Below, one piece after another: positions 4,016 through 58,461 of a stretch of 64,000 nt of DNA. The position numbers and the translations under genes are program-made. The first letter of the stretch is position 1, and the number at the start of each line of letters is the position of its first letter. The notes beneath the pieces are model-generated. The model saw only the letters and a program-made list of their open reading frames with translations. It did not search any database and was not told the origin of the DNA. This DNA is from an uncultured Planctomycetales bacterium (lineage in GTDB: Bacteria; Planctomycetota; Planctomycetia; Isosphaerales; Isosphaeraceae), in contig CAIYJE010000160.1 of NCBI GenBank assembly GCA_903926465.1, positions 62,001 to 126,000 of the forward strand. Reading direction: 5' to 3'.

Positions 4016-4744
4016 TTACTTGAGCAGTGCCAGTTCCATCGCTTGCTTCATTTCCCTGACGGCCCGATCAAACCCCACAAAAACCGCCCGGGCGACAATA
4101 CTGTGTCCGATGTTCAGCTCACGCATAGAAGGAATTGCCGCCACGTCCAAGACGTTTTGATAATTCAAACCATGTCCGGCATGGAGCAAAAGCCCAATTT
4201 CAACGGCCAAACGCCCTGCGCTGAAGAGTTGTTCCAGTTCAGACCGACGTTGAGCCTCGCTGCTGGCGTCTGCATACCGGCCCGTATGCAATTCAATTGC
4301 ATGGGCTCCCAGGTCGAGCGAAGCTTGAACCTGGTCCAGGTCTGGATCCACGAACAGGCTGACTTCCAGGCCCGCGTTCCGGCACCGTGAGATCGCTTCA
4401 CCCACACGGGCCCGATGCTTGATCACGTCCAGGCCCCCTTCGGTGGTTAACTCCTCACGCCGTTCGGGGACCAGGGTGATTTGATCGGGCTGAATTTCAA
4501 TCGCGAAATCGATGATCGGGGCATCGATCGCAGCTTCCAGGTTCAATCGGGTTCGAACCGTTTGCTTCAGGATCCGAACATCTCGCTCCTGGATATGTCG
4601 CCGGTCTTCCCGAAGATGCACGGTAATTCCGTCTGCGCCGGCCAGTTCGGCAAGGGCGGCCGCCCACACGGGGTCTGGCTCAACTCCGCCCCTGGCCTGA
4701 CGCAACGTGGCAACATGATCGATATTCACTCCGAGGCGAATCAT
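4016..4744 (-). CDS. pdxJ: Pyridoxine 5'-phosphate synthase
   Basis: PdxJ closes the pyridoxine ring from deoxyxylulose 5-phosphate and 3-amino-2-oxopropyl phosphate, the last ring-forming step of the DXP-dependent vitamin B6 pathway. The start at 4744 is chosen because [20 protein letters not shown] is the canonical PdxJ N-terminus and GGGAG lies upstream; the open frame extends further but that part is not conserved. The 242-aa length is typical. Other family motifs seen are [31 protein letters not shown] with [24 protein letters not shown] and [15 protein letters not shown]. It is preceded by the helicase gene on the same strand with a 64-bp gap, so the two may be cotranscribed. Confidence 0.94.
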
Positions 4745-4808
4745 TTCTGGATGCTCCCTGGCTGGAACGGATCTGATTTGGGCGAACCAGATCGACTTGG
4801 GGGGTATT

Positions 4809-7052
4809 TCAACCCCGACCGGAAAGTGGGCGGAGTGGTGTTTTTGAGAGCAAAAACGTTCGCTCGCCCCCCACCGTGAATGCAATCTTCGCCTTCCTGC
4901 CCTCGCCCATTCCGGCGAGCGCAGTAATTCTTCCAATCCCATACTCGGGATGGACCACCATCATTCCCGTAGTCCAGCTGGATCCTGTGGTGGAGGCGGG
5001 AGGCTGGGTGCCGGCCTTGCTACCGCCGCGGAGATCGGCCGCCGTGATCAGTTTGAATCCCGTCTGATTGGCGCCCGGGGTTGGTTCCAGGGCGCGTCGG
5101 ATTCTGGCGGTGGGGTAACCTCCGGAATCGGTCAAATCCAGGGCTTCAATCGATTCATCATCTGGGAGTTCGCTCAGGAAGATCGAAGGAATGGCAACCG
5201 ATCGCGAACCTCGGAAATCTCGAAGCTGGCAGTGGCTAATGTAAAGTTCTCGTCTTGCCCGAGTGATTCCCACGAAAAAGAGACGCCGCTCCTCTTCCAG
5301 TTGAGACTCGTGTTCGATCGATCGGGAGTGAGGAAGTAGCCCCTGCTCCAAACCAACGACAAACACCACCGGAAACTCAAGCCCTTTGGCCGCGTGCAGG
5401 GTCATGAGGGCCACCGAACCGCCGTCATCGTTCCAGCGGTCGACCGCCGACGAGAGCGTGACCTGTTCCAGGAAGTCTGAGAGGGTTGCTCCGGGGTTGG
5501 CTTCATCGAACTGGCGAGCGACGGAGATCATTTCGTCCACGTTGGCCCGTCGGTCGTCCTCGCCGCCAGCCGCTCGCTCATCCAGGTGCTTGCTCAATCC
5601 GCTCTGGACCAGGATCTGGCGGATGGCCTCCTCGGCCGTTTTATCACGCGCGGGAATGAGTTCGGCCATGAGCATCACGAAGTCACGAAGCGCTCGTGCC
5701 GGTCGGTCTTTGATTCCGCCAATGCTGGCGGCTTCCCGAGAGGCATCTAGCAAGGACAGACCAAGCCTCTGGGCGTGGGTTGCCAGTCGTTCAACCGTGG
5801 TTGCTCCGATGCCCCTGGGCGGCACATTCACAATTCTCTCAAACGCAACGTCGTCACGCGGGTTGACGACCAGGTTCAAGTACGCCAGCAGATCCTTGAT
5901 TTCCTGTCGTTCGTAAAACGACAACCCGCCCACAATTTGGTAGGGCACGCGTGCCATCCGAAATGCCGCTTCCACGGGCCTGGTCTGTGCACTCGTTCTG
6001 ACGAAAACGGCCATATCTCGGAAGCCGTATTCCCCTTCCCGCACCAAGCTCAAAATTTTGGTTGCAACGGCGTTGGCTTCTTCGACCTCGCTCGGATAAC
6101 GAGTCACTCGGACCGGCGAGCCGGTTGGATTGTCGGTTGAGAGTCCCTTGGGTTTGCGGCGCCGATTGCACCGGATCAAATGGTCGGCAACCTGCAGGAT
6201 GTTCTTCGTGCTTCGATAATTTTGTTCGAGCCGCACCACCTTACAGCCTGGAAAGTCCTGTTCAAACTCAAGGATGTTCCCGAGGTTGGCCCCACGCCAG
6301 CCGTAAATCGACTGGTCGGGGTCGCCGGTCACGCACAGGTTTTGAATGTCGACCGAGAGTCCACGAACAATGGCGTATTGCGCAAGGTTCGTGTCTTGAT
6401 ATTCGTCGACCAGAATGTACTTGAACCGAGCGTCCAGCATGGCTCTGAGGTCTGGATGGTGCCGGACGAGGGCCACCACGTGAACCAGCAGATCATCAAA
6501 ATCCACAGCAGAGCTTTTCAGTAGCCGTTTCTGGTACTCGCCATAAACCTTGGCCGTAATGCTTCCCACATGATCGCTGCGTCCGTCTCGGGAGTATTGC
6601 TCGGGGCCCATCATCTCGTTTTTGGCCCGACTAATTGCCCCTTCCACTTGCTCTGGGGTTACACCGCAGGCGTCCAGGCTAAGGGATTCCATGGTCCCGC
6701 GAACCGTCTTGAGCCGGTCAGACTGGTCATAGATTGAGAAGCCGCGATCCAGCCCAACTCGGTCGGCGTACTGACGCAGCAACCGCGCGCAGAGCCCGTG
6801 AAAGGTCCCAACCCACACGCCGGACCGAGGGGCGAGGTGCTCAATACGCTCACGCATTTCACCTGCTGCCTTGTTGGTGAATGTGAGCGCCAGAATGGAG
6901 GGGCCAGCCACGCCGTGCTGGAGCAAGTTCGCGACGCGGCGCGTGATGACGCGTGTTTTACCCGAACCTGCACCGGCCAGCACCAGTAACGGCCCGTCCT
7001 TATGACTCACGGCCTCGCGTTGTGGTTCGGTCAAATCCGAAAGTAAGTCCAT
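4809..7052 (-). CDS. pcrA: UvrD/PcrA-family ATP-dependent 3'-5' DNA helicase
   Basis: A superfamily 1A helicase of 747 aa that unwinds DNA in repair and clears replication blocks. Motifs in order: the Q motif region (LTEPQREAV), Walker A (AGAGSGKT, near residue 30), motif Ia ([11 protein letters not shown]), motif II ([10 protein letters not shown]), motif III ([14 protein letters not shown]), motif IV (LEQNYRST), motif V ([19 protein letters not shown]) and motif VI ([13 protein letters not shown]). The C-terminus ends in a Tudor-like module ([16 protein letters not shown]) typical of PcrA/UvrD. The ATG at 7052 is used. It is divergent from acpS across a 248-bp promoter region. Confidence 0.93.
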
Positions 7053-7300
7053 GAGAGACCTGTAGCTGGAGTCTGGCCAGAGCGACGGGAGCCCGGACCC
7101 GTAAGGTCGGCGGCGAAATCCGCGGGGAGCCCAGACCGTTAATATACCTAACCAAAGTCGGGCGGGCGAACGAAAGGGGTCAACACAAAGGCTGGCTCAA
7201 GCGATCTCCCTGCCGGTAAACTCTTCAGGGAAAAGTGATTGCAAAGGGCCCGATCGAGTGTGAAGGCCAAGCGAAAAGCGAAAACAAGACGAGTCGGGCC

Positions 7301-7714
7301 ATGGAAATTCGAGGCATCGGAACGGATATCGTGGAATGCCCACGAATCGGGCGCATGATCGAGCAGCACGGCGAGCAATTCTTGCGCAGGGTTTTCACGG
7401 ACCATGAGATCCGCTTCTGTCAGGACCGAACCCATGCCATTGGTCATTTCTCAGGCCGCTGGGCGGCCAAGGTGGCTCTGCTTCGAGCCCTGAGCATTTC
7501 CAGGACGGGTGGGATTGTCTGGACCGACATGGAGATCCGAAATCGTGCCGATGGACGGCCGGACGTGCGGTTTCGAGGTCGGGTCAGAGATGCCGTCGAA
7601 TCGCTTGGGGTCACCGAACTACTGCTAAGCATTTCCCATTGTCGGACGTATGCCACCGCTTCCGTATTGGCGGTGTCGTCGCCTGGGAAAACCCTCAACG
7701 AGCCACCGGCCTGA
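7301..7714 (+). CDS. acpS: Holo-[acyl-carrier-protein] synthase with an altered metal site
   Basis: AcpS transfers 4'-phosphopantetheine from CoA to the serine of acyl carrier protein. The ATG at 7301 gives 137 aa beginning MEIRGIGTDIVE, the family signature with Mg-binding Asp9. The second signature, normally AAKEA with Mg-binding Glu58, reads RWAAKVALLRAL: codon 58 is GTG (7472-7474), giving Val where Glu is expected. One base (GAG to GTG) separates the two. The C-terminal SISHCRTYATASVLA matches the family's SLSH motif. Either the enzyme tolerates the change, another residue supplies the ligand, or activity is weak. It is divergent from pcrA and convergent with topA. Confidence 0.85.
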   Translation: MEIRGIGTDIVECPRIGRMIEQHGEQFLRRVFTDHEIRFCQDRTHAIGHFSGRWAAKVALLRALSISRTGGIVWTDMEIRNRADGRPDVRFRGRVRDAVESLGVTELLLSISHCRTYATASVLAVSSPGKTLNEPPA

Positions 7715-7797
7715 ACGCATCGGCAATGCACTCAGGGCCGGTCGCCGGTATGAGATCAGGGCCCTTGGCAATTCCGCCGGCCCTGGTCTTCCATCAT

Positions 7798-10476
7798 TTA
7801 TTCCGCCGATTCCGCAACTGGGTCGGAGGTGGCGGCCTCAATTTTGGACAGTGTGGCTGGGCCTGGTTCCATGGTGCCCTTGCACTTGGGGTAGCCGGAG
7901 CAACCCAAGAAGAAACCGCGTCGGCCGCGCCGGACGGTCATGGCGCTTCCGCACTGCTCGCAGGTTTCCTCGACCTCGATCGTTTTGAGGTCGGGGCCGG
8001 TGGCGGCAGGCTTGGCGGGCTCCATGGAGGCCACCTGGTCCTTGAGCTCGTCTGGAATAGGGGCCGTGCTCCGGCATTTCGGGTAGGCCAAGCAACCCAA
8101 GAAGGCACCCCGGCGACCCGACTTTACCCCCATCGGACCTCCGCACTTGACGCATTTGACGTCAATCTGAAGTGCGGCGACGGGCTTACCCTGGTCATCA
8201 ACCTGGATCGTTGACCGGCACTTGGGGTATCCGGAGCAACCCAGGAACGCCCCTCTTGCGCCCTGACGCAGGATCATTGGCTTCTTGCACTTGGGGCAAG
8301 CATGCTCGGTGACTTCGGCCTTGGGCTTGGCCACGGGCTGGCCATCTGGGTCCAGTTCAAAGATTTCTTTGCACTTGGGATATCCCGAGCAGTACAGAAA
8401 TGGCCCCCGTTTGCTTTCCTTCTGCTTGAGTTTGTTTCCGCACGCCGGGCAAATATGATCGGTTTCAATCCCGCGTGCAGCGGAATCGCCACCCATCGGC
8501 TTCGTGTACTTGCATTCGGGGTACTTTGAGCAACCCGCAAATGCCCCCGTCCGGCCAAATTTCATGACCAGCGGTGCCTGGCAGTCTGGGCAGTTCTCGC
8601 CGGTTGCAATCTCCACGTGGCCAGGTTTTTCCTCGGCCACCTTCAGAGATTCTTGGAACGGGAAGTAAAACTCGTTGAGAACCCCAACAAGTTCTTCTTT
8701 CCCGGTCACAATCTCGTCAAGCTCGTTCTCCATGTGGCCCGTGAACTTCACGTCCATGATCTTGGGGAAGTTATCCACCAGATAGTCGGTGACGGCCATC
8801 CCCAGATCGGTCGCAAAGAATCGACGATCCTTCTGCTCGACGTATCCACGATCCTGAATCGTCTGAATGATCGGCGCGTAGGTGCTGGGCCGACCGATGT
8901 TCTCTTTTTCCAGCGCCTTGATCAGGCCGGCTTCCGAGAATCTTGGCGGTGGCTGCGTGAAGTGCTGGGTGGCCGCCAGATCCTGAAGATCGAGCGGTTG
9001 TGCGACGTTCAGGGGCGGAAGCAGGCTGTCTTCCTGCTTACCGGCGGGCGGCATCACACGCCGGTAACCATCGAAGCGCAAAATCTTGCCCTGCGACTTG
9101 AACAGGCCTGGGCCAGCCACAACCTCCACGTTCGTCACTTCGAACATGGCGGGAGTCATCTGGCTGGCCACAAACCGCCGGTAGATCATGCTGTAAAGTT
9201 TGTACTGGTCCTGCGTGAGCCGATCGCGAATGGCCTCCGGATCGAACTTGAGTTCCGTGGGTCGAATGGCTTCGTGTGCCTCTTGGGCCAGTTTGCCGGC
9301 CGCATAACGGTTCGGCTTGGCGGGGAGGTACCTGGGGCCAAAATTGTCCTCAATCTGGCGCCGGACGCTGGTGACCGCGTCATCGCTGACGCGTAAGCTA
9401 TCGGTACGCATGTAGGTAATAAGACCGACGGGGCCAGACCCATCGACCTCAATACCTTCGTACAGTTCCTGGGCAATTTTCATCGTCTTCTTGCCCGAGA
9501 ACCGCAGGCGAATGGTCGCTTGCTGCTGAAGCGTACTGGTTTTGAAAGGCGCATCCGGCCGGTCTGGCCGCTCAACGGTTTCGAGCCGATCGACCCGGTA
9601 CGACGCTTTGGCAAGCGTGTCGCGGATGTCCATGGCCTGCGTTTCATTGCCGGCCTCAAACGACTTACCTTGCCATTCCGAGAGTTCAGCCGTGAATCGT
9701 TCAGATTCTTCTTTAGATCCTACTGGGGAAAGAGTTGCGGTAACTTTCCAGTATTCCTCAGAGACGAAGGCGCGGATCTCTTTTTCCCGATCGACTATCA
9801 GCCTGACCGACACGGATTGGACACGGCCGGCGCTCAGATTTCGGGAGCGCATTTTGCGCCACAGCAAGGGGCTGAGTTGGTACCCCACAAACCGGTCGAG
9901 GAACCGGCGGGCTTGCTGGGCATTGACCTTATTGATGTCGATGGGCCCAACGTGGTTAAAAGCCTCTTTGACCGCACGTTCGGTGATTTCAAAGAAGAGT
10001 ACCCGTCTGACCCGTTCGTCTTCCAGGCCGAGTGCCTGCTGAAGGTGCCAGGCAATGGCTTCCCCTTCACGGTCCGGGTCAGTTGCCAGATAGACCATTC
10101 CGGCCCGATCGGCCTCTTTTCTCAGGTCGTTAATCGTCTCTTTTTTGCCGGGCATGATCTCGTAGTCGGGAGCATATCCGTTCTCAACATCCAGGCCGAG
10201 CTTCCGCTTGGGAAGGTCTCGGACGTGGCCCATGCTGGCTTTGACTACGAACGAGGGGCCCAGAAATTTATTGATCGATTTGGCTTTTTTGGGACTCTCA
10301 ACGATCACCAGAGATTTCCCGCCGCTCCGTGGCTCAGACGAAGTGGCTCGTTTGGGGCGGGCCGACTCGGTTTTTTTAGGTACCGATTTTTTAGTGGCGG
10401 CTTTCTTAGTAGCCGTTTTTGGGGTTTTGGGTGAACTCGTTTTGGGTGCGTCGGATTTTGCGGACTTACGTGCCAC
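7798..10476 (-). CDS. topA: DNA topoisomerase I with five C-terminal zinc fingers
   Basis: Type IA topoisomerase that relaxes negatively supercoiled DNA. It is 892 aa from a GTG at 10476, preceded by AGGATG; no ATG fits better. The first 50 or so residues are Lys/Ser/Thr/Pro-rich (a histone-H1-like tail). The Toprim domain follows (Glu60 in VIVESPKKAKSI, then DPDREGE at 133-139). Catalytic Tyr355 lies in GLITYMRTDS. From about residue 629 come five four-cysteine topoisomerase zinc modules, each ending GCSGYPKC-like; E. coli TopA has three. It is convergent with acpS (84-bp gap) and divergent from the SurA-like gene. Confidence 0.94.
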   Translation of the reverse strand: MARKSAKSDAPKTSSPKTPKTATKKAATKKSVPKKTESARPKRATSSEPRSGGKSLVIVESPKKAKSINKFLGPSFVVKASMGHVRDLPKRKLGLDVENGYAPDYEIMPGKKETINDLRKEADRAGMVYLATDPDREGEAIAWHLQQALGLEDERVRRVLFFEITERAVKEAFNHVGPIDINKVNAQQARRFLDRFVGYQLSPLLWRKMRSRNLSAGRVQSVSVRLIVDREKEIRAFVSEEYWKVTATLSPVGSKEESERFTAELSEWQGKSFEAGNETQAMDIRDTLAKASYRVDRLETVERPDRPDAPFKTSTLQQQATIRLRFSGKKTMKIAQELYEGIEVDGSGPVGLITYMRTDSLRVSDDAVTSVRRQIEDNFGPRYLPAKPNRYAAGKLAQEAHEAIRPTELKFDPEAIRDRLTQDQYKLYSMIYRRFVASQMTPAMFEVTNVEVVAGPGLFKSQGKILRFDGYRRVMPPAGKQEDSLLPPLNVAQPLDLQDLAATQHFTQPPPRFSEAGLIKALEKENIGRPSTYAPIIQTIQDRGYVEQKDRRFFATDLGMAVTDYLVDNFPKIMDVKFTGHMENELDEIVTGKEELVGVLNEFYFPFQESLKVAEEKPGHVEIATGENCPDCQAPLVMKFGRTGAFAGCSKYPECKYTKPMGGDSAARGIETDHICPACGNKLKQKESKRGPFLYCSGYPKCKEIFELDPDGQPVAKPKAEVTEHACPKCKKPMILRQGARGAFLGCSGYPKCRSTIQVDDQGKPVAALQIDVKCVKCGGPMGVKSGRRGAFLGCLAYPKCRSTAPIPDELKDQVASMEPAKPAATGPDLKTIEVEETCEQCGSAMTVRRGRRGFFLGCSGYPKCKGTMEPGPATLSKIEAATSDPVAESAE

Positions 10477-54768: not shown

Positions 54769-54966
54769 GAAATATCTCTGTTGTGGAAAAAGAATGTTGT
54801 GACCAATCTACCCGCGATCGGAACCGTGTTTGGAACGCCTACGGAGGTGCGGTTGTCAGGCGTCTGATGATTTTATCGAGTTTCGCAAGGAATGGGACCG
54901 ATAATTTATTGTTGAGCGATGTCCTGGCAGGATGCCCGGATCAAGCAGTCCGAAAGGAGGCGGAGA

Positions 54967-56226
54967 ATGACCAGTCGAGTTTATATTATTGGTCATTCGG
55001 CCATCACCTGCCTGGGCGCGGACGCACGGAGCACGTTTGAGGGACTGGTCGCCGGCCGCTCGGGAATTCAGGCTCACGAAAATTTACCGGCGGATCGCTT
55101 CCTCCAGAACATTGCCGGCCGGGTGGCAGAACTTCCGGCCCTGCCTGAAGGCTCAGACTCAAGCCTGAGTCGACTGAACGCCCGCTTTCTGCATCTCGCC
55201 GTGGCAGCCGCACGAGCGGCCATGGCCAGCGCCGGTCTAGACTCCCTGCCCGATTCTTTCCGCGAGCGATTTGCCGTGGTGGTCGGTTCGGCCTTTGGTG
55301 GCCTCGACCTTTTGGAAACCGAACGCGAGGCAGCGCAGAAGCGAAAAAATCTCGCAACCAGCCCGTTCCTGATCCCAGGCATGATCATCAATCAGGCGGC
55401 CGGTCAAATTGCCCAGCAACTCCAGGTTTTTGGGCCAAGTCTGGCTCCGGCTAATGCCTGCGCCACCGGGGGATATGCCGTGGCCGCCGGCGCTGAGATG
55501 ATTCGCTCCGGAACGGTCGATCTGGCGATCTGCGGCGCCTCTGAGAGCGCCTTTACACCTGAAATCGTGAACGGTTTTGCAACGATGCGTGCCCTGTTAG
55601 GACGAAAGGCTGGTGATCGTTCCCTGACAGATCCTGCTCAAGCCAGCAGGCCATTCAGTGTGGATCGGGCCGGCTTTGTTATGTCGGAAGGGGCAGCCAT
55701 GCTCGTGCTCGCGAGCGAGCCGACCGTTCGAGCGCTCCACCTCGTTCCCCAGGCGGAACTGATTGGCTGGGCGTCCAACTCTGACGGATTCCACATGGCG
55801 ATGCCCGATACGAAACGGATCAGCCGTTGTCTGCAACTGGCCATGACTCATGCCGGCATTCGCCCTGAAGAAGTCGACTACTACAATGCTCATGGCACCA
55901 GCACCACGGTGAACGACCGGACAGAAACAGAGGCGATCCGGGAAGCCTTTGGGCCTGCGGCTGAATCTCTGGCCATTAGCTCCATCAAGGGCGCACTCGG
56001 CCATAGCCTGGGTGCGGCCTCGGCCATCGAAGCTGCGTGCTGCGTGCGGTCTCTGCTTGAACAAACCGCCCCACCAACCATTAACCATATTCCCGATCCT
56101 GAATTGACTCTCGATTACATTCCGAACGAAGCTCGTTGCATGCCGCTGAATGTTGCCATGTCCGCCGCTTTTGGATTTGGTGGAACCAATAATGTCCTTC
56201 TCTTCCGGAGAGTTGGAAATGAGTGA
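54967..56226 (+). CDS. Beta-ketoacyl-ACP synthase (FabF-like)
   Basis: Condenses acyl groups with malonyl-ACP to extend a chain. The ATG at 54967 is chosen for the strong AAGGAGG upstream; it gives 419 aa. Catalytic residues are present: Cys165 (ANACATGG), His309 (NAHGTSTTVND), Lys341 and His346 (IKGALGHSLGAA), matching FabF spacing. A GFGGTN end motif is also present. Being followed directly by its own ACP (8-bp overlap) and two acyltransferases suggests a special chain rather than general fatty acid synthesis. It could be a polyketide-like or very-long-chain ketosynthase; the sequence alone cannot decide. Confidence 0.9.
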   Translation: MTSRVYIIGHSAITCLGADARSTFEGLVAGRSGIQAHENLPADRFLQNIAGRVAELPALPEGSDSSLSRLNARFLHLAVAAARAAMASAGLDSLPDSFRERFAVVVGSAFGGLDLLETEREAAQKRKNLATSPFLIPGMIINQAAGQIAQQLQVFGPSLAPANACATGGYAVAAGAEMIRSGTVDLAICGASESAFTPEIVNGFATMRALLGRKAGDRSLTDPAQASRPFSVDRAGFVMSEGAAMLVLASEPTVRALHLVPQAELIGWASNSDGFHMAMPDTKRISRCLQLAMTHAGIRPEEVDYYNAHGTSTTVNDRTETEAIREAFGPAAESLAISSIKGALGHSLGAASAIEAACCVRSLLEQTAPPTINHIPDPELTLDYIPNEARCMPLNVAMSAAFGFGGTNNVLLFRRVGNE

Positions 56227-56476
56227 TCCTCGTTTGCTTGCCTCGGTCATTGAACAGGTGAGACTCGTCTGCAAAGTCTCTCCCACGGTGTTGATCACGG
56301 AAGATAGTCAGTTCGTCGATGACCTTGGAATCGACTCGCTCGACCTTGTCAGCCTGTTTCTCACGATTCAGGATGAATTCTCGGTTGAGTTAGACGATGC
56401 CGAACTCACGACAATCAAGACGGTTGGTACGCTTTGTTCGGCAATCTCTAGCAGCCACGGAGTGGCTGCAGCCTGA
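56219..56476 (+). CDS. Dedicated acyl carrier protein
   Basis: 85 aa from the ATG at 56219, which overlaps the ketosynthase 3' end by 8 bp (translational coupling; GGAGAG upstream). The DDLGIDSLDLVSL motif carries Ser40, the phosphopantetheine attachment site. Helix-rich and acidic, as ACPs are, with a slightly longer, Ala-rich C-terminus. It differs from the usual housekeeping ACP (DLGADSLDTVEL), so it is probably specific to this cluster. Confidence 0.9.
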   Translation: MSDPRLLASVIEQVRLVCKVSPTVLITEDSQFVDDLGIDSLDLVSLFLTIQDEFSVELDDAELTTIKTVGTLCSAISSSHGVAAA

Positions 56477-56515
56477 TACCCGTCCAACCCTGTCCGGCGA
56501 GGAGGTTTTGATTCA

Positions 56516-57505
56516 ATGCATCGTCGGGCCCTCAAATATCGTCGTTTAATGCTCCAGCTTCTGTTCCCGGTTTTAAAACAACTGCCGGCGGATGCCGCCG
56601 CACGCATGGTCTCCAGGATCGGCGAAATTGAGTACTCGCTTGTGCCAACCTTGAGGCACAGATTTCAAGAGACGCTGAACCGAGCGGCCGATCACCTCGA
56701 TGCGAGCTGGGATGCCAACCTTGTTGGTCGTCAGCTTGCGGGTAATCAGGTTCGGTGGCGGGCTCGTGACTTGCTAGTGGATGGCCGATCTGAGGCCGAT
56801 TTTGAACGAGTTGTCCGCGTGGACGGTGCGGAACATCTTCAAAATGCCCACGCGCTCAATAAGGGTGTGATCTTGCTCGGGAACCATTTTGGTGCGCATC
56901 TTATGCCCGCGCACTGGGCGGCTCGCAAGGGATACCCCTTACGGTTGTTCATGGAGCGACCTCACCATGTGTCTCGGATTCTCTCCAGGGAATTCGATAC
57001 CGTGGGCCCGCTCGGCCAGAAAGAGTTGTTCATTTCCCGACGTTCAGACCCGGCAGACTCGGCTCGTTCGGTTTTGCGTGCGGCCCGCGTTTTGAAGTCG
57101 GGATACGTGATCTTCATTGCCGGCGATGTTCGGTGGAACGACAAGCACACCGCCTCGGTCGAATTCCTGGGCCGTCCTTGCCGGATCTCCACCACCTGGG
57201 TCACCCTGGCTGCGCTGAGCGGTGCGGCTGTGGTGCCAACCTTCTGCCACATGGATGTGAACGGGACCCATGAACTGAGTTTTCTGCCGGCGTTCCATGT
57301 GGCTTCCAAGGCCATGGCTCAAGGGCTGGCGGAACCGCTGGTACGGAACTTTCTGGCGGAAATTGAACGGCGGATCAAGATTGACCCGGCCAACAGTAAT
57401 GACTATCTGTTCTGGTCAGAGCGAGATGACCCAGCATACGCCAAGCAACGGCTGACGGACGTACCACTTACGGCTCCACCACAGAGAGGTAGGTCGGCGG
57501 CATGA
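56516..57505 (+). CDS. LpxL/HtrB-like lipid acyltransferase, copy 1
   Basis: 329 aa, ATG at 56516 with GGAGG ten bases upstream. The fold is the LpxL/HtrB (pfam03279-type) acyltransferase, which transfers acyl chains from ACP to lipid A or related lipids at the inner membrane. The key motif, normally HFGNWE, reads NHFGAHLMPAHW: His124 is kept, but the acidic residue five places on is Leu129. Other landmarks are GVILLGNHFG, RLFMERPHHVSRI, GYVIFIAGDVRWND and AALSGAAVVPTF. Copy 2 overlaps its stop by ATGA, so the two are coupled. The product is unknown. Confidence 0.8.
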   Translation: MHRRALKYRRLMLQLLFPVLKQLPADAAARMVSRIGEIEYSLVPTLRHRFQETLNRAADHLDASWDANLVGRQLAGNQVRWRARDLLVDGRSEADFERVVRVDGAEHLQNAHALNKGVILLGNHFGAHLMPAHWAARKGYPLRLFMERPHHVSRILSREFDTVGPLGQKELFISRRSDPADSARSVLRAARVLKSGYVIFIAGDVRWNDKHTASVEFLGRPCRISTTWVTLAALSGAAVVPTFCHMDVNGTHELSFLPAFHVASKAMAQGLAEPLVRNFLAEIERRIKIDPANSNDYLFWSERDDPAYAKQRLTDVPLTAPPQRGRSAA

Positions 57506-58461
57506 GGCCCTGGTCGGCTCCCTTTCGCAAACGTACGGTGAGATTCTTACTCCCGCTGCTCACGCGCATGGAGCCGGACCGCGCATCTCGAATGATTTCA
57601 ACCTTGGGTGTCTGGGAAACGAATTTGCACCCAGCACGCCGAAAATCATTCCAACGGGCGTTCTCTGACCTACGCGATCGCCTGGGGTGCGACTGGAATA
57701 TTGAATCTTTGGTTCCCAAGGTCATCAGTAATCTCTGGCGCTGGGACGCTCGCGATTTTCTTCTGGAAAAATGTGACGAGGCAACTCTGGGTCGAACCCT
57801 GGAACTTGTCGGGACGAACTATCTGGATGAAGCGTTGGCACAAAAGCGGGGCGTCCTGCTTCTCTTCAACCACTTCGGCCCCTTTCTGATTCCCGCGCAC
57901 TGGATTGTTCGTCAGGGCCATACCCTACGATGGTTCACAGAGCGGCCCAGGAACATTTCTCCAACGGTTGCCAAGACATTTCAGACTGAGGGTCCACTCG
58001 GGCAAAAAGGCCTGTTTCTGACCCGGCAGATGAATTCTTCACAAGGTGGCGCAGCCCTCAGACGCGCCATTCGAATGCTTCAGTCTGGCATCATTGTGCA
58101 GGCCGCCGGCGATGTTCGCTGGGAGGGTCCACGATGTGTCAACGCTCACTTTCTTGGGCACGATTTCTCGTTCGCAACCAACTGGGTAAGCCTGGCGGCA
58201 CTCTCTGGGGCCGCGGTGCTACCTGTTCAATCCGTATTGCTGCCAGGCGGAAGGTACCGCGTGAAGTTTGAACCCCATGAACTGGTACCCCGAACCGCTG
58301 CCTCTGATCCTGAGCAAGCTCGATACTGGATTGCGCGAAATCTGGCTCGCGTGGAAAAGTGCATTCGACAATACCCAGACAATTGTGGCGAGTACGCCTT
58401 CTGGCAACCCACTCAAGCCAAACACGAGGATCGTTTGCAATATCAGCCGCAGCCGGCCTGA
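57502..58461 (+). CDS. LpxL/HtrB-like lipid acyltransferase, copy 2
   Basis: 319 aa, starting in the ATGA overlap with copy 1. It shares the same landmarks: GVLLLFNHFGPFLIPAHW (His124, with Leu129 instead of the acid), RWFTERPRNISP, GPLGQKGLF, IVQAAGDVRWEGP and AALSGAAVLPVQ. The two copies clearly arose by duplication, and both keep PAHW with a second His. Two coupled copies imply two acylations or a heterodimer. It follows the KAS and ACP genes and precedes the membrane phosphatase-like gene by 54 bp. Confidence 0.8.
   Translation: MRPWSAPFRKRTVRFLLPLLTRMEPDRASRMISTLGVWETNLHPARRKSFQRAFSDLRDRLGCDWNIESLVPKVISNLWRWDARDFLLEKCDEATLGRTLELVGTNYLDEALAQKRGVLLLFNHFGPFLIPAHWIVRQGHTLRWFTERPRNISPTVAKTFQTEGPLGQKGLFLTRQMNSSQGGAALRRAIRMLQSGIIVQAAGDVRWEGPRCVNAHFLGHDFSFATNWVSLAALSGAAVLPVQSVLLPGGRYRVKFEPHELVPRTAASDPEQARYWIARNLARVEKCIRQYPDNCGEYAFWQPTQAKHEDRLQYQPQPA

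What the first reader, a model, noticed from the sequence alone, without database searches (positions are those of the whole stretch)
7472..7474. AcpS has Val58 in place of the metal-binding Glu58
The numbering aligns exactly with E. coli AcpS: Asp9 is kept in GTDIVE, but AAKEA reads AAKVA because codon 58 is GTG. In the known mechanism Asp9 and Glu58 hold Mg2+. A one-base difference could be a sequencing error, a rare natural variant or a lineage-specific change with a compensating ligand. The window also holds a specialised ACP that must be modified.
Basis: partly seen in the sequence, partly recalled or inferred. Interest (0 to 1): 0.55.

Follow-up and report, generated by a model that had tools for sequence, protein, structure and literature searches.

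The report
Holo-ACP synthase missing its metal ligand
A planctomycete bacterium carries a normally essential fatty-acid-synthesis enzyme whose metal-holding amino acid is gone, and related bacteria have repeatedly changed the same metal site, nearly always when a second enzyme of the same trade is present, so the old enzyme has probably handed over its job and may now do something else.

Summary
Confirmed: acpS (7301-7714, +) has GTG = Val at codon 58 (7472-7474), opposite Glu58 of E. coli AcpS in a gap-free alignment. Other family-conserved positions (Glu48, Ala51, Lys62, Gly65) are changed too, so a sequencing error is unlikely. Val58 is in no other of 165 planctomycete AcpS read, but Asp9 or Glu58 is changed in 49 of 165. 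In an evenly drawn class sample: 45 of 102 genomes with a stand-alone Sfp-type transferase against 2 of 43 without; by one parsimony reconstruction all 10 losses fall on Sfp-bearing branches (p about 0.01). Changed proteins also lose other CoA contacts but keep Arg15, Glu36, Trp54 and Lys57 in 49 of 49; of six close pairs without a carboxylate at position 9, five show strong purifying selection (omega 0.02-0.06). The window's genome has an Sfp-type transferase with intact ligands. Most likely that enzyme primes the carrier proteins and this AcpS is a retained pseudoenzyme. Inactivity, handover and the new role are inferred, not shown.

The parts
7301..7714 (+). acpS-like gene, 137 aa (group I phosphopantetheinyl transferase fold)
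7472..7474 (+). codon 58 GTG = Val in place of the metal ligand Glu58
7325..7327 (+). codon 9 GAT = Asp9, first metal ligand, kept
7442..7444 (+). codon 48 GGT = Gly where 43 of 43 family orthologues have Glu
7484..7486 (+). codon 62 CGA = Arg in place of Lys62, which contacts the CoA phosphate in solved AcpS
7493..7495 (+). codon 65 AGC = Ser where 43 of 43 family orthologues have Gly (adenine contact in the B. anthracis structure paper)
4809..7052 (-). pcrA/uvrD-type helicase, neighbour, used as rate control (name by my reading)
7798..10476 (-). topA, neighbour, used as rate control (name by my reading)
56150..56476 (+). small ACP with LGIDSLDL serine motif, a possible substrate that needs a transferase

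Best explanation
This AcpS has lost its catalytic metal/CoA site (Val58, Arg62, Ser65) and most likely no longer makes holo-ACP. Priming of the FAS II ACP and the other carrier proteins is done by the genome's Sfp-type transferase on another contig. Where Planctomycetia carry a stand-alone Sfp-type enzyme, AcpS is freed from its essential job, and its metal site changes again and again (Asp9 to Gln, Glu, His, Asn, Ser, Gly, Val or Ala; Glu58 to Gln, Asp or Val); in three Sfp-bearing genomes of the sample no AcpS was found. Where the gene is kept, the fold and a set of residues including Arg15 stay fixed, which suggests a non-catalytic role, perhaps holding ACP as a scaffold or regulator. Shown: the residue changes, intact ligands in the second transferase of Isosphaeraceae, the association, the purifying selection in several changed clades. 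Inferred: loss of activity, the handover, the new role.
For: Val58 and linked changes. In 49 changed against 116 intact proteins other CoA contacts are changed 2.12 against 0.08 of 5 on average. Own Sfp-type gene over the Pfam cut-offs with Asp-x-Glu and Lys-Glu ligands; all 35 family proteins that matched it at E 1e-3 keep these ligands. Association in the class sample: 45 of 102 against 2 of 43, Fisher 6e-7; without family f3, 20 of 76 against 0 of 40, p 8e-5; one parsimony reconstruction puts 10 of 10 (any change) and 13 of 13 (non-carboxylate) losses on Sfp-bearing branches, p 0.011 and 0.018. No AcpS found in three Sfp-bearing genomes, G141, G158, G184. A genome with exactly the chromosome length of Isosphaera pallida has Ser9, no SHC motif, and only one other PF01648 hit, an Sfp-type gene with intact ligands. 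AcpS evolves faster where the site is changed, ratio to PcrA+TopA median 2.71 (7) against 0.76 (30), p 7e-4, yet in close pairs without a carboxylate at position 9 omega is 0.021-0.055 in 5 of 6. Mutating the first or third Mg ligand abolished activity in group II enzymes (PMC4103896, abstract and passages).
Against: No assay. Two genomes, G153 and G182, have a changed AcpS (His9, Gln9) and no Sfp-type hit by PF01648 or PF22624; they are fragmented assemblies (380 and 1190 contigs), but a changed AcpS that still works fits too. f3 proteins keep Glu58 in 27 of 29 and Lys57 is kept in 49 of 49, which could mean residual catalysis. 57 of 102 Sfp-bearing genomes keep both ligands, so an Sfp-type gene does not force the loss. 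E. coli FabG mutants stay active without their assigned triad (PMC7973133, abstract), so residue loss is not proof. In Isosphaeraceae alone 7 of 32 against 0 of 12 is not significant (p 0.088). Independent-pairs tests had too few informative pairs (1.4 for, 0.0 against), and the fewest state changes on that tree, 13 and 14, exceed the 10 and 13 losses, so the reconstruction also needs regains. For the window's own gene the codon test is a branch average with saturated synonymous change and may predate the loss. Sfp status was typed by hand from frame length and Pfam hits; active sites outside Isosphaeraceae were not read.
Confidence: 0.6

Rival explanations
1. The changed AcpS is still a working transferase with an altered metal site (in the window Asp9, CoA phosphates and water would hold Mg2+), perhaps slower or with another specificity.
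For: Asp9, Lys57, Arg53, Ser112 and His113 are kept in the window protein; f3 proteins keep Glu58 in 27 of 29; purifying selection in changed clades; two genomes without a detected Sfp-type gene have a changed AcpS.
Against: First and third ligands essential in group II enzymes (PMC4103896); Lys62 and Gly65 changed too; no acid at position 11; losses map to Sfp-bearing branches in the reconstruction.
Confidence: 0.21
2. The gene is a relic in slow decay: Sfp made it dispensable, it has no function now, and it will be lost.
For: Window AcpS changes about twice as fast as its neighbours (ratio 1.93); its branch omega is raised in one tree (0.134 against 0.050, p 1e-6); no AcpS found in three Sfp-bearing genomes.
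Against: Open frame; omega = 1 rejected for its branch in both trees, p 1e-11 and 4e-8, though synonymous sites are saturated, and in the second tree its omega is lower than the background (0.074 against 0.144); in clades where both members lack a carboxylate at position 9 the gene is still constrained (5 of 6 pairs).
Confidence: 0.16
3. Assembly or sequencing error at codon 58 in an otherwise normal AcpS.
For: GAG to GTG is one base; raw reads could not be seen.
Against: Five family-conserved positions in residues 48-65 differ in the same gene; the three weakest PF01648 scores among the family's syntenic AcpS are G004, G011 and this one, all with a changed site; a similar loss is in a genome matching finished Isosphaera pallida.
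Confidence: 0.03

Closest known systems
AcpS (group I holo-ACP synthase), e.g. E. coli 5vbx, V. cholerae 3qmn
   Same: Fold (VIA Z 21.1 to 3qmn_A, rmsd 1.4 over 126; Z 20.6 to 5vbx_A, rmsd 1.7 over 125), length, gap-free alignment to residue 124 of E. coli AcpS, above the TIGR00516 cut-off (77.6 against 59.8)
   Different: Glu58, Lys62 and Gly65 of the metal/CoA site are replaced
E. coli AcpS D9A laboratory mutant, PDB 5xuh
   Same: AcpS fold with one metal ligand removed; solved with CoA (entry title only)
   Different: Engineered and the other ligand; here natural, with further CoA-site changes
Cyanobacterial Sfp-type transferases serving primary metabolism (Sppt; HetI)
   Same: The genome's second transferase scores best with NCBIfam HetI (202.6 bits, under that model's cut-off of 370); Synechocystis Sppt is a single Sfp-type enzyme that primes FAS II ACP (PMC4103896, PMC5605751, passages)
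   Different: Here an AcpS-type gene is still present but altered; priming of FAS ACP by this Sfp-type gene is inferred
Pseudoenzymes in general (PMC10211241, PMC5106787: search listing only)
   Same: Catalytic site lost, fold and a residue set kept under selection
   Different: No non-catalytic role has been shown for this one

Membership tests
AcpS (holo-ACP synthase, TIGR00516) | Score above curated cut-off | tested here: met
   77.6 bits against 59.8
AcpS (holo-ACP synthase, TIGR00516) | Group I fold, about 120 residues | tested here: met
   pLDDT 92.9; Z 21.1 to 3qmn_A
AcpS (holo-ACP synthase, TIGR00516) | Metal ligands Asp9 and Glu58 | tested here: not met
   Asp9 kept, Glu58 is Val
AcpS (holo-ACP synthase, TIGR00516) | Transfers phosphopantetheine to apo-ACP; trimer | not testable with these tools
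   needs assay; only a monomer was predicted
Sfp-type (group II) transferase, second gene of the genome at C63 | Over 220 aa, PF01648 and PF22624 over cut-off | tested here: met
   295 aa, 72.1 and 37.5 bits
Sfp-type (group II) transferase, second gene of the genome at C63 | Asp-x-Glu and Lys-Glu ligands | tested here: met
   GIDIE and RKEAYLKA
Sfp-type (group II) transferase, second gene of the genome at C63 | Primes the FAS II ACP in this organism | not testable with these tools
   inferred: the only other PF01648 hit of the genome

The most novel reading that the evidence does not exclude
In Planctomycetia AcpS has been turned again and again into a selected, non-catalytic ACP-binding protein after an Sfp-type enzyme took over carrier-protein priming; one family (f3, Gemmataceae-like) has fixed a recognisable form with Gln9 and Phe113, and the window shows a separate route that loses Glu58.
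Probability: 0.4. Interest if true: 0.75.

Novelty: new variant of a known kind. Interest (0 to 1): 0.58.

Why it matters
AcpS is described as highly conserved and essential and is pursued as an antibiotic target (PMC11436758, passages). A bacterial class in which its metal site changes many times while the gene stays under selection gives a natural system to ask what AcpS does besides catalysis and how a central enzyme is replaced. It also warns annotation: the window protein and 4 of 6 other site-changed proteins tested score above the NCBIfam holo-ACP synthase cut-off, the other two (the I. pallida match and one f3 protein) just below it.

Tried and rejected
Compensating ligand: no acid at positions 10, 11, 13, 54, 55, 59, 61 or 62 in any of 49 site-changed proteins; Glu12 is acidic in 49 of 49 and in 115 of 116 intact ones, so it is no compensation. 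Second AcpS in the own genome: none by PF01648 or by protein search. Independent-pairs test: uninformative. Codon test on the window's branch: omega = 1 rejected but branches ran into the length bound (saturated); omega raised in one tree (0.134 against 0.050) and lowered in the other (0.074 against 0.144), so relaxation is not settled this way. Enrichment of the window's conserved-site changes in residues 48-66: 5 of 15 against 5 of 47, p 0.052, suggestive only; the conserved columns were chosen on the intact set, which favours calling changed rows eroded. Isosphaeraceae alone: 7 of 32 against 0 of 12, p 0.088. Fifty genomes of the named-contig scan (50 of 51; L157 left out): by hand count 26 with a stand-alone Sfp-type gene and 2 changed AcpS (L102 Asn9, L139 Glu9), 24 without and 0 changed, p 0.27; that scan selected on motifs HCRTYATA or I[LVI]GIG[TS]xI[VI]E and kept 80 of 522 relatives, so it under-samples proteins that lost those motifs and was not used for the class counts. 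Asp9-to-Glu rows count as changed in the 'any' tally and as kept in the 'strict' one. Close pairs not used as evidence: G138/G188 and G177/G183 (both Glu9) and G193/G203 (G193 has both ligands); the sixth valid pair, G132/G173, has 4 differing codons and p 0.087; G117/G173 shares G173 with it; G150/G170 is near saturation. PF22624 rang in only 2 of 14 control genomes, so its silence is weak support for absence. Two Isosphaeraceae frames with a PF01648 hit (G031 second, G020 second) did not match the own Sfp protein at E 1e-3, and their alignment was not read. Long AcpS branches (G011, G004, G176, G137, G152) attract each other in the trees, so event counts are rough. Literature: no paper on AcpS inactivity in planctomycetes was seen in the listings, which show only the top of their hits (open-licence PMC papers only).

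Full report
Observation. The frame from ATG 7301 to the stop at 7714 encodes a 137-residue AcpS. Codon 58 (7472-7474) is GTG. phmmer places it against E. coli AcpS residues 1-124 without gaps, Val opposite Glu58. The structure paper seen in passages (PMC3447402) lists Asp8, Glu57/58 and Lys61/62 with Ser/His (102/103 in B. anthracis) at the CoA phosphates and metal, Arg53 at the 3'-phosphate and Gly65 at the adenine; the mapping of Ser/His to 112/113 here is mine. In the window Asp9, Arg53, Ser112 and His113 are kept; Glu58, Lys62 and Gly65 are not. The predicted monomer (pLDDT 92.9) keeps the AcpS fold (Z 21.1 to 3qmn_A, 20.6 to 5vbx_A).

Own genome. The window is part of contig C160 of a 6.89 Mb, 207-contig genome. 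PF01648 finds two genes: this one (48.9 bits) and a 295-aa Sfp-type gene on C63 (73.5 bits) with GIDIE and RKEAYLKA, closest to the NCBIfam HetI model but under its cut-off. Twelve PP-binding matches exist, among them one on C168 in a 100-aa frame, between frames that I read as fabG and fabF and near plsX- and fabD-like frames, and the window's 108-aa ACP. So holo-ACP must be made, and the Sfp-type gene is the only other candidate found.

Same family. 45 genomes, the own one included, were searched; a syntenic or best-match AcpS was read in 44 (none in G022). 29 loci of the named-contig scan carry the same AcpS as family genomes, among them Singulisphaera acidiphila and Aquisphaera insulae, which NCBI places in Isosphaeraceae. 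Among the 43 other AcpS, position 58 is Glu in 42 and Gln in 1; position 9 is Asp in 38, with Asn, Glu, Ser, Gly and Val once each. Asn9 is in Aquisphaera insulae JC669 (L094). Ser9 is in a genome whose chromosome length, 5,472,964, equals that printed for Isosphaera pallida IS1B (PMC3072084, passages; family). On a PcrA+TopA tree of 37 taxa the AcpS end branches of the 7 changed lineages are long relative to the control (median ratio 2.71 against 0.76 for 30 intact, p 7e-4; window 1.93, A. insulae only 0.65). All 35 Sfp-type proteins that matched the own one at E 1e-3 (34 from other family genomes) keep their ligands.

Class sample. 149 genomes of the class, completeness at least 95%, were drawn evenly; 145 have an AcpS, and it was read in all 145 (24). 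A stand-alone Sfp-type gene was called by hand from a further PF01648 match over cut-off in a frame of about 200-540 aa. Asp9 or Glu58 is changed in 45 of 102 with, and 2 of 43 without, such a gene (Fisher 6e-7); counting only non-carboxylates, 34 of 102 against 2 of 43 (9e-5); leaving out family f3, 20 of 76 against 0 of 40 (8e-5). So 57 of 102 Sfp-bearing genomes keep both ligands. PF22624 found no N-terminal Sfp domain in any of 51 genomes scored as lacking Sfp (39 of the class sample outside Isosphaeraceae, 12 Isosphaeraceae) and found it in 5 of 5 Sfp-bearing genomes given, though it rang in only 2 of 14 control genomes. Four of the 149 lack a found AcpS: three have an Sfp-type gene (G141, G158, G184) and one (G171) no transferase at all. 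Fisher treats relatives as independent; on the AcpS tree built without columns 9 and 58, one reconstruction (midpoint root, ties to the kept state) puts 10 of 10 losses (any change) and 13 of 13 (strict) on Sfp-bearing branches (p 0.011 and 0.018 by branch length). The fewest changes on that tree are 13 and 14 and the independent-pairs test had no power.

Family f3. One locus (L111, titled Gemmataceae bacterium) lies in a genome whose AcpS hit has the same contig number, position and score as that of f3 genome G144, hence 'Gemmataceae-like'. AcpS is present in 29 of 31; position 9 is Gln 18, Glu 6, Asp 2, His 2, Ala 1; Glu58 is kept in 27; position 113 is Phe in 16. A pcrA match lies in 27 of the 29 loci, which supports orthology.

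Constraint. In 49 site-changed against 116 intact proteins, other CoA contacts (53, 62, 65, 112, 113; Ala at 112 not counted as a change) are changed 2.12 against 0.08 times on average, while Arg15, Phe27, Glu36, Trp54, Ala55, Lys57, Ala59 and Ala118 are unchanged in 49 of 49 (rows are not independent). Of nine close pairs, six have no carboxylate at position 9 in either member (states): omega is 0.021-0.055 with omega = 1 rejected (p 2e-9 or less) in G117/G173, G096/G111, G126/G147, G150/G170 and G137/G152; G132/G173 differs in 4 codons (omega 0.16, p 0.087). The other three pairs hold Glu9 or an intact member and are not used.

Reading. A site that cannot hold the metal in the known way, a second enzyme with intact ligands, recurrent change that follows that enzyme, and continued constraint on the rest point to handover and a non-catalytic remnant role. 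PDB holds AcpS-holo-ACP complexes (5vcb, 1f80; titles), so holding ACP is a natural guess, but nothing here shows it. Activity with an altered site remains possible, above all for the Gln9/Glu58 family.

Noticed in passing
window 54919-58461: A ketosynthase, a small ACP and two frames that look like lipid A-type acyltransferases (names by my reading) in a row: a possible lipid-making cluster.
   Followed up: partly
window 4016-10476: Gene order pdxJ-pcrA-acpS-topA is shared by many Isosphaeraceae loci, and a pcrA match lies in 27 of 29 f3 AcpS loci.
   Followed up: partly
L160, L196, L197: A second, 131-144 aa AcpS-like protein, 36-40% identical to the window AcpS, in G002, G017 and G009; two of them show an HGID motif. 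G002 is the Asn9 genome, so it may have a spare AcpS-type enzyme.
   Followed up: partly
Many planctomycetes have frames of 1000-2000 aa with a PF01648 match, perhaps polyketide synthases with a built-in transferase (my guess).
   Followed up: no
G171: A genome listed as 96% complete with no phosphopantetheinyl transferase found by three searches.
   Followed up: no
G153 and G182: Changed AcpS (His9, Gln9) and no Sfp-type gene found: either assembly gaps or a sign that such AcpS still work.
   Followed up: partly
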